Shown: positions 15,059 through 22,075 of the stretch, one piece after another
Layout: every line of letters starts with the position of its first letter
How positions within the stretch are numbered: position 1 is the stretch's first letter
Origin: Candidatus Bathyarchaeota archaeon
GTDB lineage: Archaea; Thermoproteota; Bathyarchaeia; Bathyarchaeales; DTEX01
Direction: 5' to 3'
DNA: 39,608 bases
NCBI GenBank assembly: GCA_018396635.1
Contig: JAGTQE010000013.1
Coordinates: forward strand, 1-39,608
Program-made: the position numbers and the translations under genes
The notes under the pieces: model-generated
Database searches by the model: none
The model's input: only the letters and a program-made list of their open reading frames with translations
What the model was told of the DNA's origin: nothing

Positions 15059-15334
15059 TTAGCGCACCAGCGTTATCTCTATCGTGCTGACATTTGATGG
15101 AGCATTTCCGCTGCCGGATTGAACCTGCTCTGTTCCTATGCTAATGTTTCCTACCTTCACGTCTGGTAGGAATCTGCGCCTAATAACTTCAACGACATCT
15201 ACAGCTCTGCTTATCGCCCGCCCCCTCGCCTTAACGCAAACCTCATTAGCCCCGCTGTGGAATAGCGTTAGACAGGCTAGGACATAATTCATCACTGGTT
15301 TTCGCCCTACGAGTACCGAGTTGCTTTTAGACAA
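15059..15334 (-). CDS. alba: DNA/RNA-binding protein Alba
   Basis: Alba is an abundant dimeric chromatin protein of archaea that also binds RNA. The 91-residue protein carries the family signature [67 protein letters not shown], including the GRKP basic site at residues 10-13 and the RFLPDV loop. Start is TTG at 15334, with GGCGGTAGG upstream. A TATA-like run lies about 50 nt ahead, and the nusA-like gene follows after 55 nt. Confidence 0.95.
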
Positions 15335-17410: not shown

Positions 17411-19591
17411 TTGAGTAACGAAGGTAATAAGCGAGCTCCGAAAGATATTGAGAACTTAGTGTCGTCAATTCTTCAGGAGAATGAAAAGATAATTTGTAGT
17501 GTCGCCGGAGACATAGATGAAGACGGGAATTTTGGTGAAAGATGGTTATTTTTAACAACAAAAAGAATAATCGTTACAGACTCTGCGACAAAGAGGCTCG
17601 TTGAATTTTCATTAAGCGACATAAAATCATGCTTCGTTAAAGACTATCTGGGTAATTCCGAGATGTTTGTTGAGTCGGTGAGCGATGGATTAAAAAGCGT
17701 AATACGGTTCTCCAGAGACCATCTAGAAGAATTTTATAATGTGGCTAAGATCATAGATAAAGCTGCTAAAAAAGAGATCTCTCTAGAGGAAATGGGCTGT
17801 GAAGTTTTTGAGGATTTTCTGCACAAGAAGAATAATGTTAGGAAGACCCAAGCCTTCTTCTGGCTAATGGGTTTCCTAAGGCCCTACATTCACTACGTTA
17901 TTATTGCGGTAGTGCTCTCATTATCCATAACCGCCCTAAACCTAACACCACCATATCTAATGAAGCTGCTGATTGATGAAGTCTTTACGAAAGGAAACGT
18001 AAACATGCTCGTTTACATAGTGCTCATATTTATTTCGGTTTATGCGCTCAACGCGCTTTTAGGGGCAGCTCAGAACTATACGCTGTCATATTTGGGTCAA
18101 AAGATAATTTACAGCATACGGATAAAGGTTTATGAGCATCTGCAAAGACTTTCACTCGGCTTTTATGATAGGATGAGCTCAGCGCGCATTATGACTAGGG
18201 TCACTGACGATGTTGGGCGTGTGCAATGGTTCCTTACATGGGGGACCCAAACGCTGATCACAAGTAGCCTGCAAATTATAGGAATAGGCATAATAATCTT
18301 CTCGATGAATTTATATTTAGCTCTCTTCGCTTTGATGCCAATACCCATAATTATAATTGGTGTTCCGCTCTTTAGGAAGAGGGCGCATAAGGCGTATCAT
18401 AAGGTCTGGCGTAGATGGGCCGACGTCAGCTCGCTGTTATGGGACACGATCCCTGGAATAATTGTAGTTAAAACATTTACGCAGGAAAAGTTTGAGTTAA
18501 AGCGGCTAGTGGAGAGGATGAGCCACCTCGTTGCCGCAAACCTTAAAGTCACATTGCTCCACATAAAATTCTTTCCGCTGCTAGGCTTCGCCATATCTTC
18601 GGGAACGGCAATAGTTTGGTGGGTTGGGGGCCAGGAGGTACTAAGAGGAAATATAACGTTTGGTTCATTAGTCGCCTTCATAAGTTATATGGGCATGTTT
18701 TACGGACCAGTACAGACCATAAGCAACCTCTTCGAGCCACTACAATCCTCAATAACCTCCAGTGAAAGGATTCTGGAAATAATGCAGGTGGAGCCTGAGA
18801 TTAAGGATGCGCCTGACGCTGTAGAATTCCAGTTTAAAGGCTCCATAGTATTCAAGAATGTTAGCTTCGGCTACAATCCCTATCTCCCAGTACTAAGCAA
18901 CATAAACTTGGAGATAAGGCCCGGAGAGAAGATCGGCATAGTTGGGCCCAGCGGCTCCGGTAAAACAACTCTCACAAAGCTGCTGCTTAGATTCTATGAT
19001 CCAACCGAGGGGGCGATATATATTGACGGCGTAGACCTGCGGAAAATAAAACTCCAGTGCCTTAGATCCCAGATAGGTCTAGTCCTCCAAGATCCCTTGC
19101 TATTCTATGGCTCAATAGCCTATAATATTGCTTATGGAAAACCGGATGCTACGCCAGAGGAGATAATAGCTGCAGCTAAGGCGGCAAATGTACACGAGTT
19201 TGCGATGAATCAGCCACTAGCATACGACACTAACGTCGGGGATAGGGGATGGAGGCTTTCAGGCGGTGAGAGGCAGCGTGTATCGATAGCTAGGGCAATA
19301 ATAACTGAGCCGAAAATATTAATATTGGATGAGGCAACATCGTCCGTTGACACGCTGACCGAGAGAAAGATCCAGGAAGCCATGGAGAACCTTGCCAAAG
19401 GGCGGACAACAATTATAATAGCTCATAGACTTTCAACGCTGCAGAATGTTGATAGGATAGTTGTTATGGATAAGGGGAGAATAGTTGAGGTTGGAACCCA
19501 TGAGGAATTGATGAAGGCTGGAGGATTATATAGCCAGCTATATAAGGCGCAGTTCGCAGAAGAGGCTACGGTAAGCGTTGTGCAGAGGTGA
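17411..19591 (+). CDS. ABC exporter (membrane and ATPase domains fused) with N-terminal PH-like domain
   Basis: A half-size type IV ABC exporter of 726 residues that should work as a dimer. Residues about 15-120 form an unusual soluble N-terminal domain (LQENEKIICSVAGDIDEDGNFGERWLFLTTKRIIVTDS), with the beta pattern of bacterial PH/GRAM-like domains. Six transmembrane helices follow (about 150-420) and then the ATPase domain with Walker A GPSGSGKT (512-519), signature LSGGERQR (616-623), Walker B ILILDEATSSVD and switch IAHRLS. Start is TTG at 17411; the G-run at 17391-17397 is a distant SD. The DUF1854 gene begins 5 nt after the stop. The substrate is unknown. Confidence 0.93.
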   Translation: MSNEGNKRAPKDIENLVSSILQENEKIICSVAGDIDEDGNFGERWLFLTTKRIIVTDSATKRLVEFSLSDIKSCFVKDYLGNSEMFVESVSDGLKSVIRFSRDHLEEFYNVAKIIDKAAKKEISLEEMGCEVFEDFLHKKNNVRKTQAFFWLMGFLRPYIHYVIIAVVLSLSITALNLTPPYLMKLLIDEVFTKGNVNMLVYIVLIFISVYALNALLGAAQNYTLSYLGQKIIYSIRIKVYEHLQRLSLGFYDRMSSARIMTRVTDDVGRVQWFLTWGTQTLITSSLQIIGIGIIIFSMNLYLALFALMPIPIIIIGVPLFRKRAHKAYHKVWRRWADVSSLLWDTIPGIIVVKTFTQEKFELKRLVERMSHLVAANLKVTLLHIKFFPLLGFAISSGTAIVWWVGGQEVLRGNITFGSLVAFISYMGMFYGPVQTISNLFEPLQSSITSSERILEIMQVEPEIKDAPDAVEFQFKGSIVFKNVSFGYNPYLPVLSNINLEIRPGEKIGIVGPSGSGKTTLTKLLLRFYDPTEGAIYIDGVDLRKIKLQCLRSQIGLVLQDPLLFYGSIAYNIAYGKPDATPEEIIAAAKAANVHEFAMNQPLAYDTNVGDRGWRLSGGERQRVSIARAIITEPKILILDEATSSVDTLTERKIQEAMENLAKGRTTIIIAHRLSTLQNVDRIVVMDKGRIVEVGTHEELMKAGGLYSQLYKAQFAEEATVSVVQR

Positions 19592-19596
19592 TTTAA

Positions 19597-20097
19597 ATGC
19601 CGCTTTCTGATTTTCTGAAGTCTCTCAATATTCTAGATCCAAAAAAGGTGAAAGTTTTTATTGAGGAGCAGGGGAACTCCCTTAAGCTAATTATTGATGG
19701 TAAAGTTCTCTCCGGGCTTATACCGGCTAGACCATTTCCAATAACCCATCCAGAATTCATAATTTTCAGGGATAACTATGGTGTCGATGTCTGCATGATT
19801 AAGGATTACAGGGCTCTGGATGAGGAATCGAGGAGGAATCTCCAAAAGATTTTGGACAAGCTATACTTTATTCCCCGGATTACAAGGATTAAGAGGATTG
19901 AAACTAGCGGAGACGAGTTTATATGGGACGTTGTAACTGATAGGGGCCCAAAAACGTTTAGGACGCGAGGCCGCATGAGCGTAATTCAGGTTGAGAATAG
20001 GGTTGTCATAACAGATATAAATAGCAATGTTTATGAAATCGAAGATTTATCTAATCTGGATGCGCATAGCATAAGTGAACTTGAATTAACAATATAA
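19597..20097 (+). CDS. DUF1854-family protein
   Basis: A 166-residue soluble protein whose C-terminal two thirds match the DUF1854 pattern as I remember it: FRDNYGVDVCMIKDYRALDEESRRNLQKILDKLYFIPRITRIKRIETSGDEFIWDVVTDRGPKTFRTRGR, ending in VVITDINSNVYEIEDLSNLDAHS. The biochemical role of DUF1854 is not known. In bacteria such genes stand beside an ABC transporter in loci associated with cyanophycin metabolism; the same pairing occurs here with a 5-nt gap, and GGTGA overlaps the transporter stop. It probably works with the exporter. Confidence 0.8.
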   Translation: MPLSDFLKSLNILDPKKVKVFIEEQGNSLKLIIDGKVLSGLIPARPFPITHPEFIIFRDNYGVDVCMIKDYRALDEESRRNLQKILDKLYFIPRITRIKRIETSGDEFIWDVVTDRGPKTFRTRGRMSVIQVENRVVITDINSNVYEIEDLSNLDAHSISELELTI

Positions 20098-20122: not shown

Positions 20123-20719
20123 TTATTTAGGAGGTTTTGGAAATGCTCCATTTGTCCTGTTTTTAGCGACCATAGCTGCCTCCTCAAGTATCCTATCAGC
20201 CTCCACGCTCTCAGAATCAAGTGTGAGGTTTTCATGCGTGGTTCCACTAACCTCGTTAACAACCTCATCTAATACCTTCTCAACTTGAGTAAGCTCCGAA
20301 TTAATTTCGGGGACGAAGCCCGCTATCTTCTCACGGACCTCACCGACTATCTTTCTGGCCAATGACGTGGCAGACATAAAGTTGCCGATTTCATAAATCG
20401 TGCGCAGCCTTAATGCAGTTTTGTCAAGCGCCATCTTTGAATTAATAAGCAGACCCTTATGTCTCCGTATTTCTGCCAGTTCATTGGCGAGAATCTTCGC
20501 CCTAGCTTCGTCATGTCGCTCGTACGCCGAAACAATCTTCTCCGACAACTCCTTCTCACGCCTATCATAACGCTCAATATGTTCATTTATCTTATTCAAC
20601 TGAAGTTCGATGCATCTCACAGCGCTGTTAAGCTTGTCCTTCAGGGACGGAGTTGGCCGAAGTGCTCCCTTTAGCCCCCCAACCTCCTTCTCCCATTTCT
20701 CATAAAAATTTGAGGGCAA
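20123..20719 (-). CDS. CdvB-like ESCRT-III protein
   Basis: A 198-residue homologue of archaeal ESCRT-III (CdvB), which forms membrane-deforming filaments in cell division or vesicle release. The core (about 22-150) has the long charged helices of the fold: [64 protein letters not shown] followed by the amphipathic [23 protein letters not shown]. It lacks the C-terminal winged helix by which the full-length Sulfolobus CdvB binds CdvA. The chain ends in FPKPPK, which resembles the proline-rich MIM2 motif that binds CdvC (Vps4). Start is TTG at 20719 with AAGGTGGTG upstream. No cdvA or cdvC is in the window, so it may be a paralogue rather than the main division gene. Confidence 0.85.
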
Positions 20720-20853: not shown

Positions 20854-21609
20854 ATGACCATTGAGAGAATTGTGACTGGCATACCAGGATTCGATGAAAT
20901 ACTTAATGGTGGTATACCTAAACGGAATGTTGTCCTCTTATCCGGTGGACCCGGAACCGGGAAGTCTATTTTCGGCTACCAATATCTTTTTAGTGGGCTT
21001 GTAAGGAAAGAGCCCGGCGTGTTTGTTGCCCTGGAGGAGCATCCAGTTCAAGTAAGGCTTTCCATGGCCCAGTTTGGTTGGGATGTTTCATCCTATGAGG
21101 ATAGAGGCTTATTCGCTTTAGTTGACGCCTTCACAGCTGGGATAGGGGAGGCGGCGAAGAGGGAAAAGTATGTTGTTAGGGCTCCGGACGATTTCCAGAT
21201 GCTTATAGATGTTCTAAGGGCCGCCATCAAAGACGTTAGCGCCGAGAGGGTTGTTGTAGATTCTGTTACAACGCTCTATATAACGAAGCCTGCTCTGGCA
21301 AGGAGCATGGTTCTACAGCTGAAGAAAGTTCTGTCCGGATTGGGATGCACATCACTACTTATTTCGCAGGTAAGCGTCACTGAGAGGGGTTTTGGCGGCC
21401 CTGGAGTTGAGCATGCTGCTGATGGCATAGTTAGACTCGACTTAGACGAGATTGATGGCGAGCTTAGGCGTAGCATTATAGTTTGGAAGATGCGTGGGAC
21501 ATCACACTCCATGAAAAGACACTCTTTTGAGATAACCGATAAAGGTATAATTATTAAGCCTAAAGAAGTTATTGTAGTATCTCATAGGAGGATGGGTGAG
21601 TATGAGTGA
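20854..21609 (+). CDS. KaiC-like RecA-fold ATPase
   Basis: A 251-residue single-domain archaeal KaiC/RadA-type ATPase. It begins [37 protein letters not shown], with Walker A at 31-38, followed by [20 protein letters not shown], a Walker B-like [11 protein letters not shown] and the conserved [66 protein letters not shown]. These archaeal proteins are not clock proteins; many seem to be signalling ATPases. An ATG at 20854 is preceded by GGGGAGGAG and a strong TATA, so I reject the much earlier frame start. Its stop overlaps the next gene's start. Confidence 0.9.
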
Positions 21610-22075
21610 GGTGCCCTTATCACCGATCGGTAGGGAGCAGATCCATAAGCTCGAAGCAGTGCTACTAATAAACAGTATACTTAGGCCAGACGTCCTCGAG
21701 GAGCTTAAGAACCCTGAGGAAAGGATAACTTGGGTTGACAGCCTCGCGGTTGCAGCAGCGGCTCTGGCAAGGGAGAAGGCGAGAATGACGGTGTCACAAA
21801 TAGCTGAGGAGCTCGGCAGGACTGAGACGACCATAAGAAATCATTTGCAGGGGAAGACTAGAGCTGGTCAGATAGTCAGAGAGACCTACGAAAAGATATC
21901 CAGGGAGAATATAACAGTAATGCTACCGGACTTGGTATCAGCCGAGGAGGTTAAGCGCCTAAAATCCGAGTTAGATGAAGAGAGAAGAAAGAGACTTGAG
22001 ATGGAAAATATTCTCAAGGAGATACATGGACTGTTAACGCAGATCCTTGACCGCGTTAGCAGAGCGCTCCCTTAG
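21602..22075 (+). CDS. Small HTH protein of the KaiC-adjacent regulatory family
   Basis: A 157-residue protein with three parts: an N-terminal helical segment ([51 protein letters not shown]), a helix-turn-helix ([31 protein letters not shown]), and a C-terminal coiled coil ([39 protein letters not shown]). It resembles the probable regulatory domain described as lying next to KaiC homologues in archaea (TIGR03879 as I recall). The ATG at 21602 overlaps the KaiC-like gene by 8 nt; a GTG at 21596 is possible, with AGGAGG at 21586-21591. The tight overlap implies a two-gene unit. Confidence 0.82.

What the first reader, a model, noticed from the sequence alone, without database searches (positions are those of the whole stretch)
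20123..20719. Wing-less CdvB-like ESCRT-III protein with a proline-rich end
The protein has the ESCRT-III core but no winged helix for CdvA, and it ends in FPKPPK, like a MIM2 motif for CdvC/Vps4. It stands apart from cdvA and cdvC. In a genome that also encodes SMC-ScpAB, it could be a specialised filament for vesicles or a late division step.
Basis: partly seen in the sequence, partly recalled or inferred. Interest (0 to 1): 0.55.

Follow-up and report, generated by a model that had tools for sequence, protein, structure and literature searches.

The report
Extra wingless archaeal ESCRT-III division paralogue
This is a real archaeal cousin of the ESCRT-III membrane-cutting proteins, one of six in its genome and of an ordinary wingless type, but it changes fast and its close relatives have mostly lost the tail motif that normally hooks such proteins to the ATPase that takes them apart.

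Summary
The ORF at 20123-20719 (minus, TTG start, 198 aa) is a genuine ESCRT-III protein of the CdvB1/CdvB2 class (CdvB1/B2 120.7 bits, CdvB 69.9, CdvB3 18.4; best fold match CdvB2 filaments). The host is a Bathyarchaeia MAG: a same-order genome has exactly the length of Bathyarchaeum tardum. It encodes six ESCRT-III proteins: one winged CdvB in a cdvB1/2-cdvA-cdvB-cdvC cluster, and five wingless ones. Lacking the wing is therefore the class norm, not a peculiarity.

FPKPP formally fits the published MIM2 core pattern, but only 2 of 8 orthologues fit it strictly and 5 of 8 loosely, so the CdvC hook looks degenerate. The group is confined to 8 of 11 genomes of one genus, plus two doubtful long-branch relatives, among 256 genomes of the class, and is absent at readable syntenic loci in the other three. 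It evolves faster than its paralogues but under purifying selection. Best reading: an old, dispensable, fast-evolving CdvB1/2-class accessory filament subunit with a weakened CdvC hook. Vesicle or late-division roles remain untested.

The parts
20123..20719 (-). gene of the wingless CdvB1/2-class ESCRT-III protein (198 aa, TTG start)
20687..20713 (-). predicted N-terminal amphipathic helix (residues 3-11, F...W motif), likely membrane contact
   Evidence: AF2 helix 3-11, low confidence; F5 and W9 invariant in the 21 rows of A1; F...W in 8 of 8 orthologues; role inferred from Sulfolobus CdvB proteins (PMC12818579)
20234..20644 (-). ESCRT-III core, helices alpha1 to alpha4 (residues 26-162)
   Evidence: AF2 model, pLDDT mostly 70-93; matches to CdvB2 and CdvB structures
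20147..20212 (-). helix alpha5 (residues 170-191)
   Evidence: AF2 model, pLDDT about 60
20126..20143 (-). C-terminal FPKPPK (residues 193-198), degenerate MIM2-like tail
   Evidence: fits core pattern PhiPxPhiP; 2 of 8 orthologues do; low confidence and unstructured in the model
17411..19591 (+). neighbour: ABC transporter, cyanophycin-metabolism-associated type by best NCBIfam match (611 bits, below its cut-off of 880)
19597..20097 (+). neighbour: DUF1854 protein
   Evidence: Pfam PF08909 115 bits; present in 10 of 10 genomes with this ESCRT-III group and 7 of 51 without
20854..21609 (+). divergent neighbour: KaiC-like ATPase
   Evidence: Pfam PF06745 E 1.3e-84; adjacent in 5 of 8 orthologue loci

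Best explanation
The protein is an accessory ESCRT-III filament subunit of the CdvB1/2 class in a Bathyarchaeia cell that also has CdvA, winged CdvB, CdvC, four other wingless CdvB1/2 copies and FtsZ. Inferred working: its N-terminal amphipathic helix touches the membrane, its alpha1-alpha4 core polymerises or co-polymerises with the other CdvB1/2 proteins on a membrane neck, and its short C-terminal tail is a degenerate MIM2, so CdvC extracts it weakly or only through neighbouring subunits. Shown: family, fold, absence of wing, tail sequence, restricted distribution, purifying selection with raised amino-acid replacement. Inferred: membrane binding, copolymerisation, weak CdvC binding. Unknown: which process it serves (division neck, vesicle release or another).
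For: Family and fold. Own-genome repertoire of six ESCRT-III proteins with a CdvB1/2-CdvA-CdvB-CdvC cluster. Wingless side of the tree, starred 8-row clade. An origin as a recent copy of the genus's other paralogues is rejected: AU p 0.019 (C2-type), 0.001 (operon type), 9.5e-5 (C34/C15-type) (the groups were named after seeing the first tree). Tail: strict MIM2 core in 2 of 8 orthologues, against 51 of 68 other wingless rows and 25 of 30 CdvB rows. Selection: dN/dS 0.11 to 0.16 in the three pairs where dS is finite; dN 0.221 between G000 and G002 against 0.053 for the operon copy, 0.113 for CdvB and 0.144 for the C2-type copy. Dispensable: missing in G004, G008 and G009, with the neighbourhood readable in each. 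N-terminal F...W in 8 of 8.
Against: The window's own tail still fits the MIM2 core (FPKPP), and a loose PhiPxxP is kept in 5 of 8 orthologues, so CdvC binding may persist. Sulfolobus CdvB1/CdvB2, which bind MIT only marginally as peptides, still work in division with CdvC (PMC5840170, PMC10017037), so motif weakness need not mean independence of CdvC. No expression, localisation or binding data. The hydrophobic moment of the N-terminal segment is modest (0.455, 3.2% of shuffles reach it) and lower still in several orthologues. An AU test does not exclude that the clade branches at the CdvB/CdvB1-2 divide (p 0.146).
Confidence: 0.6

Rival explanations
1. A standard late-acting division subunit like Sulfolobus CdvB2: recruited to the constricted neck and pulled out by CdvC through a working FPKPP MIM2, giving abscission and vesicle release.
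For: FPKPP meets the published MIM2 core (pattern from PMC8970359); CdvB2 is its best structural match; in Sulfolobus CdvB2 is needed for abscission and extracellular vesicles (PMC10017037).
Against: The motif is not conserved among orthologues (2 of 8 strict); the gene is missing from 3 of 11 genus genomes; four other, better conserved CdvB1/2 copies are candidates for that role.
Confidence: 0.2
2. A CdvB3-like subunit in use: core without working C-terminal hook, serving virus egress, vesicles or repair instead of division.
For: Degenerate tail, fast change and patchy presence; CdvB3 has only the core and is reported as important for virus budding (PMC7615534, passage).
Against: Sequence is far nearer CdvB1/B2 than CdvB3 (120.7 against 18.4 bits); I saw no viral or vesicle gene beside it.
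Confidence: 0.1
3. A functional partner of the neighbouring ABC transporter/DUF1854 pair, for example membrane remodelling linked to that export system.
For: DUF1854 occurs in 10 of 10 genomes that hold this ESCRT-III group and 7 of 51 that do not (Fisher p 2e-7 without correction for kinship); adjacent in 7 of 8 orthologue loci; in G006, G013 and G022 both are present though apart.
Against: 8 of the 10 genomes are one genus, so the events are few; G009, G012 and G015 keep DUF1854 without this ESCRT-III; the genes are on opposite strands, not an operon.
Confidence: 0.07
4. A decaying, non-functional paralogue.
For: Raised dN, degraded tail, losses in 3 of 11 genomes.
Against: Open reading frames in 8 of 8 genomes and dN/dS 0.11-0.16 in three pairs.
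Confidence: 0.03

Closest known systems
CdvB2 (and CdvB1) of Sulfolobales
   Same: ESCRT-III core, N-terminal amphipathic segment, no winged helix, gene away from cdvABC; best PDB and fold match is CdvB2
   Different: About 30% identity; tail FPKPPK ends right after the motif; orthologues mostly lose the strict MIM2; the host has five wingless copies and FtsZ too
CdvB (winged, MIM2 rich in prolines)
   Same: ESCRT-III fold
   Different: No winged helix; lower profile score (69.9 against 120.7 bits); this genome has its own winged CdvB beside cdvA and cdvC
CdvB3
   Same: Core with little or no C-terminal extension, as the tail decays
   Different: Sequence hardly related by profile (18.4 bits)
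retroCHMP3 (mammalian interfering ESCRT-III copies)
   Same: Only by analogy: C-terminally altered, fast-changing ESCRT-III duplicate
   Different: No shared function shown; known to me from recall and from a reference-list entry only

Membership tests
ESCRT-III (Snf7/CdvB) family | Significant profile match to a family member model | tested here: met
   NCBIfam CdvB1/B2 E 5.8e-35; PDB CdvB2 E 7.2e-24. Pfam Snf7 itself only E 0.045, under its cut-off
ESCRT-III (Snf7/CdvB) family | Helical hairpin alpha1-alpha2 followed by alpha3-alpha5 | tested here: met
   AF2 helices 26-67, 71-111, 114-132, 137-162, 170-191; CdvB2 filament Z 16.8, rmsd 3.3 over 151 residues, above the unrelated helical bundles (14.4)
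CdvB1/2 class | Snf7 core without a winged helix (class scheme of PMC8970359) | tested here: met
   17 residues after the last core motif against 112 in the winged CdvB
CdvB1/2 class | MIM2 core PhiPxPhiP in the tail | tested here: inconclusive
   Window protein meets it (FPKPP), 6 of its 7 orthologues do not; binding not testable
CdvB1/2 class | NCBIfam NF041005 equivalog cut-off 350 bits | tested here: not met
   120.7 bits; the four other wingless copies of the genome also fail (182.9-187.8), so the cut-off is narrower than the class and I do not treat it as defining
CdvB1/2 class | Phylogenetic place on the wingless side | tested here: met
   the exact depth of branching is not fixed (AU p 0.146 for branching at the CdvB divide)
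CdvB (winged) class | C-terminal broken winged helix that binds CdvA | tested here: not met
   absent in the window protein
Division-ring subunit | Localises to the division site and is removed by CdvC | not testable with these tools
   needs experiment

The most novel reading that the evidence does not exclude
The group is a natural MIM2-less or MIM2-poor ESCRT-III that has left the CdvC cycle: a membrane-bound cap or poison subunit that co-polymerises with CdvB1/2 and slows or blocks their removal, perhaps to interfere with ESCRT-dependent virus or vesicle release, in the manner of retroCHMP3 in mammals. Losses of the strict motif in two other wingless lineages of the same order (the C2-type FPELV-like copies, 11 of 11 rows, and the extra copies in genus g21, 4 of 4 rows) would make tail loss a recurrent theme in Bathyarchaeia.
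Probability: 0.08. Interest if true: 0.7.

Novelty: new member of a known kind. Interest (0 to 1): 0.3.

Why it matters
This genus of Bathyarchaeia encodes both FtsZ and a Cdv system with up to six ESCRT-III proteins. A set of paralogues with graded CdvC hooks (proline-rich CdvB, FPELP copies, FPELV copies, and this decaying tail) would let one test how MIM2 strength sets the order of ESCRT-III removal. For the finding itself the main message is moderating: wingless CdvB-like proteins are the rule, and this one stands out only by its fast change and tail decay.

Tried and rejected
Winged CdvB membership: rejected, no wing. Recent duplicate of another genus paralogue: rejected by AU tests, with the caveat that groups were named after seeing a tree; one further AU test (window clade plus all family copies) did not finish and is not used. 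Pseudogene: disfavoured. Ammonia-oxidiser host (I first guessed Nitrososphaerales): the archaeal AmoA search found nothing in 16 of 16 genomes, but no control genome rang either, so it proves nothing; the Bathyarchaeales identification rests on genome length. dN/dS of the window against G002 and G006 is not computable (synonymous sites saturated). The two long rows G013 L033 and G022 L034 join the clade with star support but on long branches; I treat them as doubtful. Rows dropped before the tree: 3 of 111 hits (two fragments under 155 aa and one truncated duplicate); identical proteins had been merged before that count (for example L156 with L155); three CdvB genes are in twice, once truncated at a locus edge, so the CdvB count of 30 rows holds duplicates and truncated rows. 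Not all matches were fetched for the tree; those listed and left out had at most 37% identity to the window protein. No complex of tail and MIT domain could be modelled here.

Full report
WHAT IS THERE. The minus-strand ORF 20123-20719 encodes 198 residues from a TTG start and ends in FPKPPK. NCBIfam gives CdvB1/B2 120.7 bits (E 5.8e-35), CdvB 69.9 bits and CdvB3 18.4 bits; PDB sequence search gives CdvB2 (9s97, E 7.2e-24) then CdvB (9s9j, E 2.4e-15). Pfam Snf7 alone is marginal (E 0.045), as it is for the operon copy (E 0.0091). An AlphaFold2 model from a 21-row alignment (A1) has pLDDT 74.4 and pTM 0.59 with helices 3-11, 26-67, 71-111, 114-132, 137-162 and 170-191. Foldseek ranks CdvB2 filaments first (E 2.0e-7, TM 0.68/0.71) and CdvB next; VIA-align gives Z 16.8 for CdvB2, 15.9 for CdvB and 14.4 for the best unrelated helical bundle.

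HOST AND REPERTOIRE. The window is contig C5 of a 1.45 Mb, 35-contig MAG. A same-order genome, G032, is one contig of 2,152,501 bases, the exact size printed for Bathyarchaeum tardum M17C (2152501 bp, passage of PMC10477458), so the order is Bathyarchaeales (GTDB B26-1); this is an inference from length. The genome has six ESCRT-III proteins: on C33 a cluster of CdvB1/2-like (218 aa), CdvA (222 aa, CdvA coiled coil 27.5 bits, just under Pfam's cut-off of 30), CdvB (280 aa, with a weak C-terminal HTH-family match at 244-279) and CdvC (377 aa with MIT, AAA and Vps4_C domains); solo CdvB1/2-like genes on C34, C2 and C15; and the window gene. The genome also has two FtsZ-family genes and ScpA/ScpB.

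THE ABSENT WING IS ORDINARY. PMC8970359 (passages) defines CdvB as Snf7+MIM2+winged helix, CdvB1/2 as Snf7+MIM2 and CdvB3 as Snf7 only; [quoted passage not shown] The window protein has 17 residues after its last core motif, the four other wingless copies 29-32, and CdvB 112.

THE TAIL. With the published core pattern (PhiPxPhiP; Phi = AILMFVPGW, x = RKDE), FPKPP fits. It lies in the alignment column of FPELP in the paralogues. Among the 8 orthologues 2 fit (window FPKPP, G006 FPDLP); the others read FPKTS, FPNSQ, no motif, and FPFSP three times. A loose PhiPxxP is kept in 5 of 8. For comparison 51 of 68 other wingless rows and 25 of 30 CdvB rows fit; of the 17 wingless misses 11 are one paralogue (FPELV or similar, 'C2-type') and 4 are an extra copy in genus g21. 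So tail weakening is recurrent in the wingless class of this order, and the window protein itself is borderline, not motif-less. Sulfolobus CdvB1/CdvB2 peptides bind MIT with Kd above 100 uM (PMC5840170, passage), so even standard CdvB1/2 hooks are weak.

EVOLUTION. In a 108-row tree (quick method) and 49- and 46-row trees (careful) the window gene sits in a starred 8-row clade of one genus. Two long-branch proteins (G013, G022) join it with star support. AU tests reject grouping the clade with the genus's C2-type (p 0.019), operon-type (0.001) and C34/C15-type (9.5e-5) copies or all of them (0.001), and do not reject branching at the CdvB/CdvB1-2 divide (0.146). Among 256 genomes of the class, matches at E 1e-40 or better occur in 10 genomes: 8 of 11 in the genus plus G013 and G022; four of the fourteen listed matches are other paralogues. 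The gene shows dN 0.221 between G000 and G002 against 0.053 (operon copy), 0.113 (CdvB), 0.144 (C2-type) and 0.046 (KaiC neighbour), and dN/dS 0.11, 0.13 and 0.16 in the three pairs with finite dS. It is therefore constrained, but replaces amino acids one and a half to four times faster than these ESCRT-III copies of the same genomes. The C34 copy (dN 0.020) is not a fair yardstick, since its synonymous sites are also unusually alike.

NEIGHBOURHOOD. In G000, G002, G005 and G007 the order is ABC transporter, DUF1854, ESCRT-III (opposite strand), KaiC-like ATPase, HTH protein, nitroreductase; G001, G003 and G010 lack the KaiC and HTH genes; in G006 ribosomal-protein genes (recognised by reading) replace the ABC/DUF1854 side. 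In G004 and G008 the KaiC gene lies beside an Alba gene with no ABC, DUF1854 or ESCRT-III between, and both genomes lack a DUF1854 match altogether. In G009 DUF1854 lies directly beside the nitroreductase gene, so the absence of the ESCRT-III gene at that place is not an assembly gap. DUF1854 is found in 10 of 10 genomes with the ESCRT-III group (counting G013 and G022) and 7 of 51 without; uncorrected Fisher p 2e-7, but 8 of the 10 are one genus. I report this as a lead.

HOW IT MOST LIKELY WORKS. Shown by sequence and model: core, no wing, short tail, F...W at the N-terminus in 8 of 8 orthologues. Established elsewhere: N-terminal amphipathic helices of Sulfolobus CdvB, B1 and B2 are required for membrane binding (PMC12818579, passages); CdvB2 without MIM2 stabilises bridges and blocks abscission, and CdvB2 is needed for vesicles (PMC10017037, passages). 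Inference: a membrane-touching filament subunit that mixes with other CdvB1/2 proteins and has a weak CdvC hook, hence slow or indirect removal. Which membrane process it serves cannot be told from sequence.

NOVELTY. A new member of the CdvB1/2 class. Searches of the paper library, and the passages read, showed no description of this gene group; PMC8970359 does not contain the word stem Bathyarchae in its main text, and PMC10936438 mentions it once, for extra CdvA-like proteins. Most subscription papers were not searchable.

Noticed in passing
L216:10808-11452 (G000:C34) and L215:4018-4665 (G002:C22): A solo CdvB1/2 gene is 93.7% identical in DNA between two species over 648 bp, the gene plus about 14 bp, with unrelated flanks; pS is 0.19 where the operon copy of the same species pair has 0.72. 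Recent single-gene transfer or conversion of an ESCRT-III gene, unless the 7.3 kb G002 contig is mis-binned.
   Followed up: partly
G000:C1:188847-189317 and G000:C10:14725-15195: Two FtsZ-family genes in this genome; six of ten genus mates show one and four none. FtsZ and a full Cdv cluster coexist.
   Followed up: no
L010:4708-5352 and its orthologues (L172-L174, L181-L187): A second wingless ESCRT-III lineage of the genus reads FPELV or similar at the MIM2 place: 11 of 11 rows fail the strict core.
   Followed up: partly
L149, L150, L190, L191: An extra ESCRT-III copy in genus g21 of another family also lacks the strict MIM2 core (LPDAA, LPEIS, LPEVM; 4 of 4 rows).
   Followed up: no
window 17411-20097: ABC transporter plus DUF1854 protein, best matched by NCBIfam 'cyanophycin metabolism-associated' models below their cut-offs, in a Bathyarchaeia genome; DUF1854 is patchy in the order.
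   Followed up: partly
window 20854-22075: KaiC-like ATPase and an HTH coiled-coil protein, divergent from the ESCRT-III gene, missing together from this place in G001, G003 and G010.
   Followed up: partly
window 15059-15334: Alba gene (Pfam 81.2 bits) missed at a 100-aa cut-off; it marks the rearranged junction in G004 and G008.
   Followed up: yes
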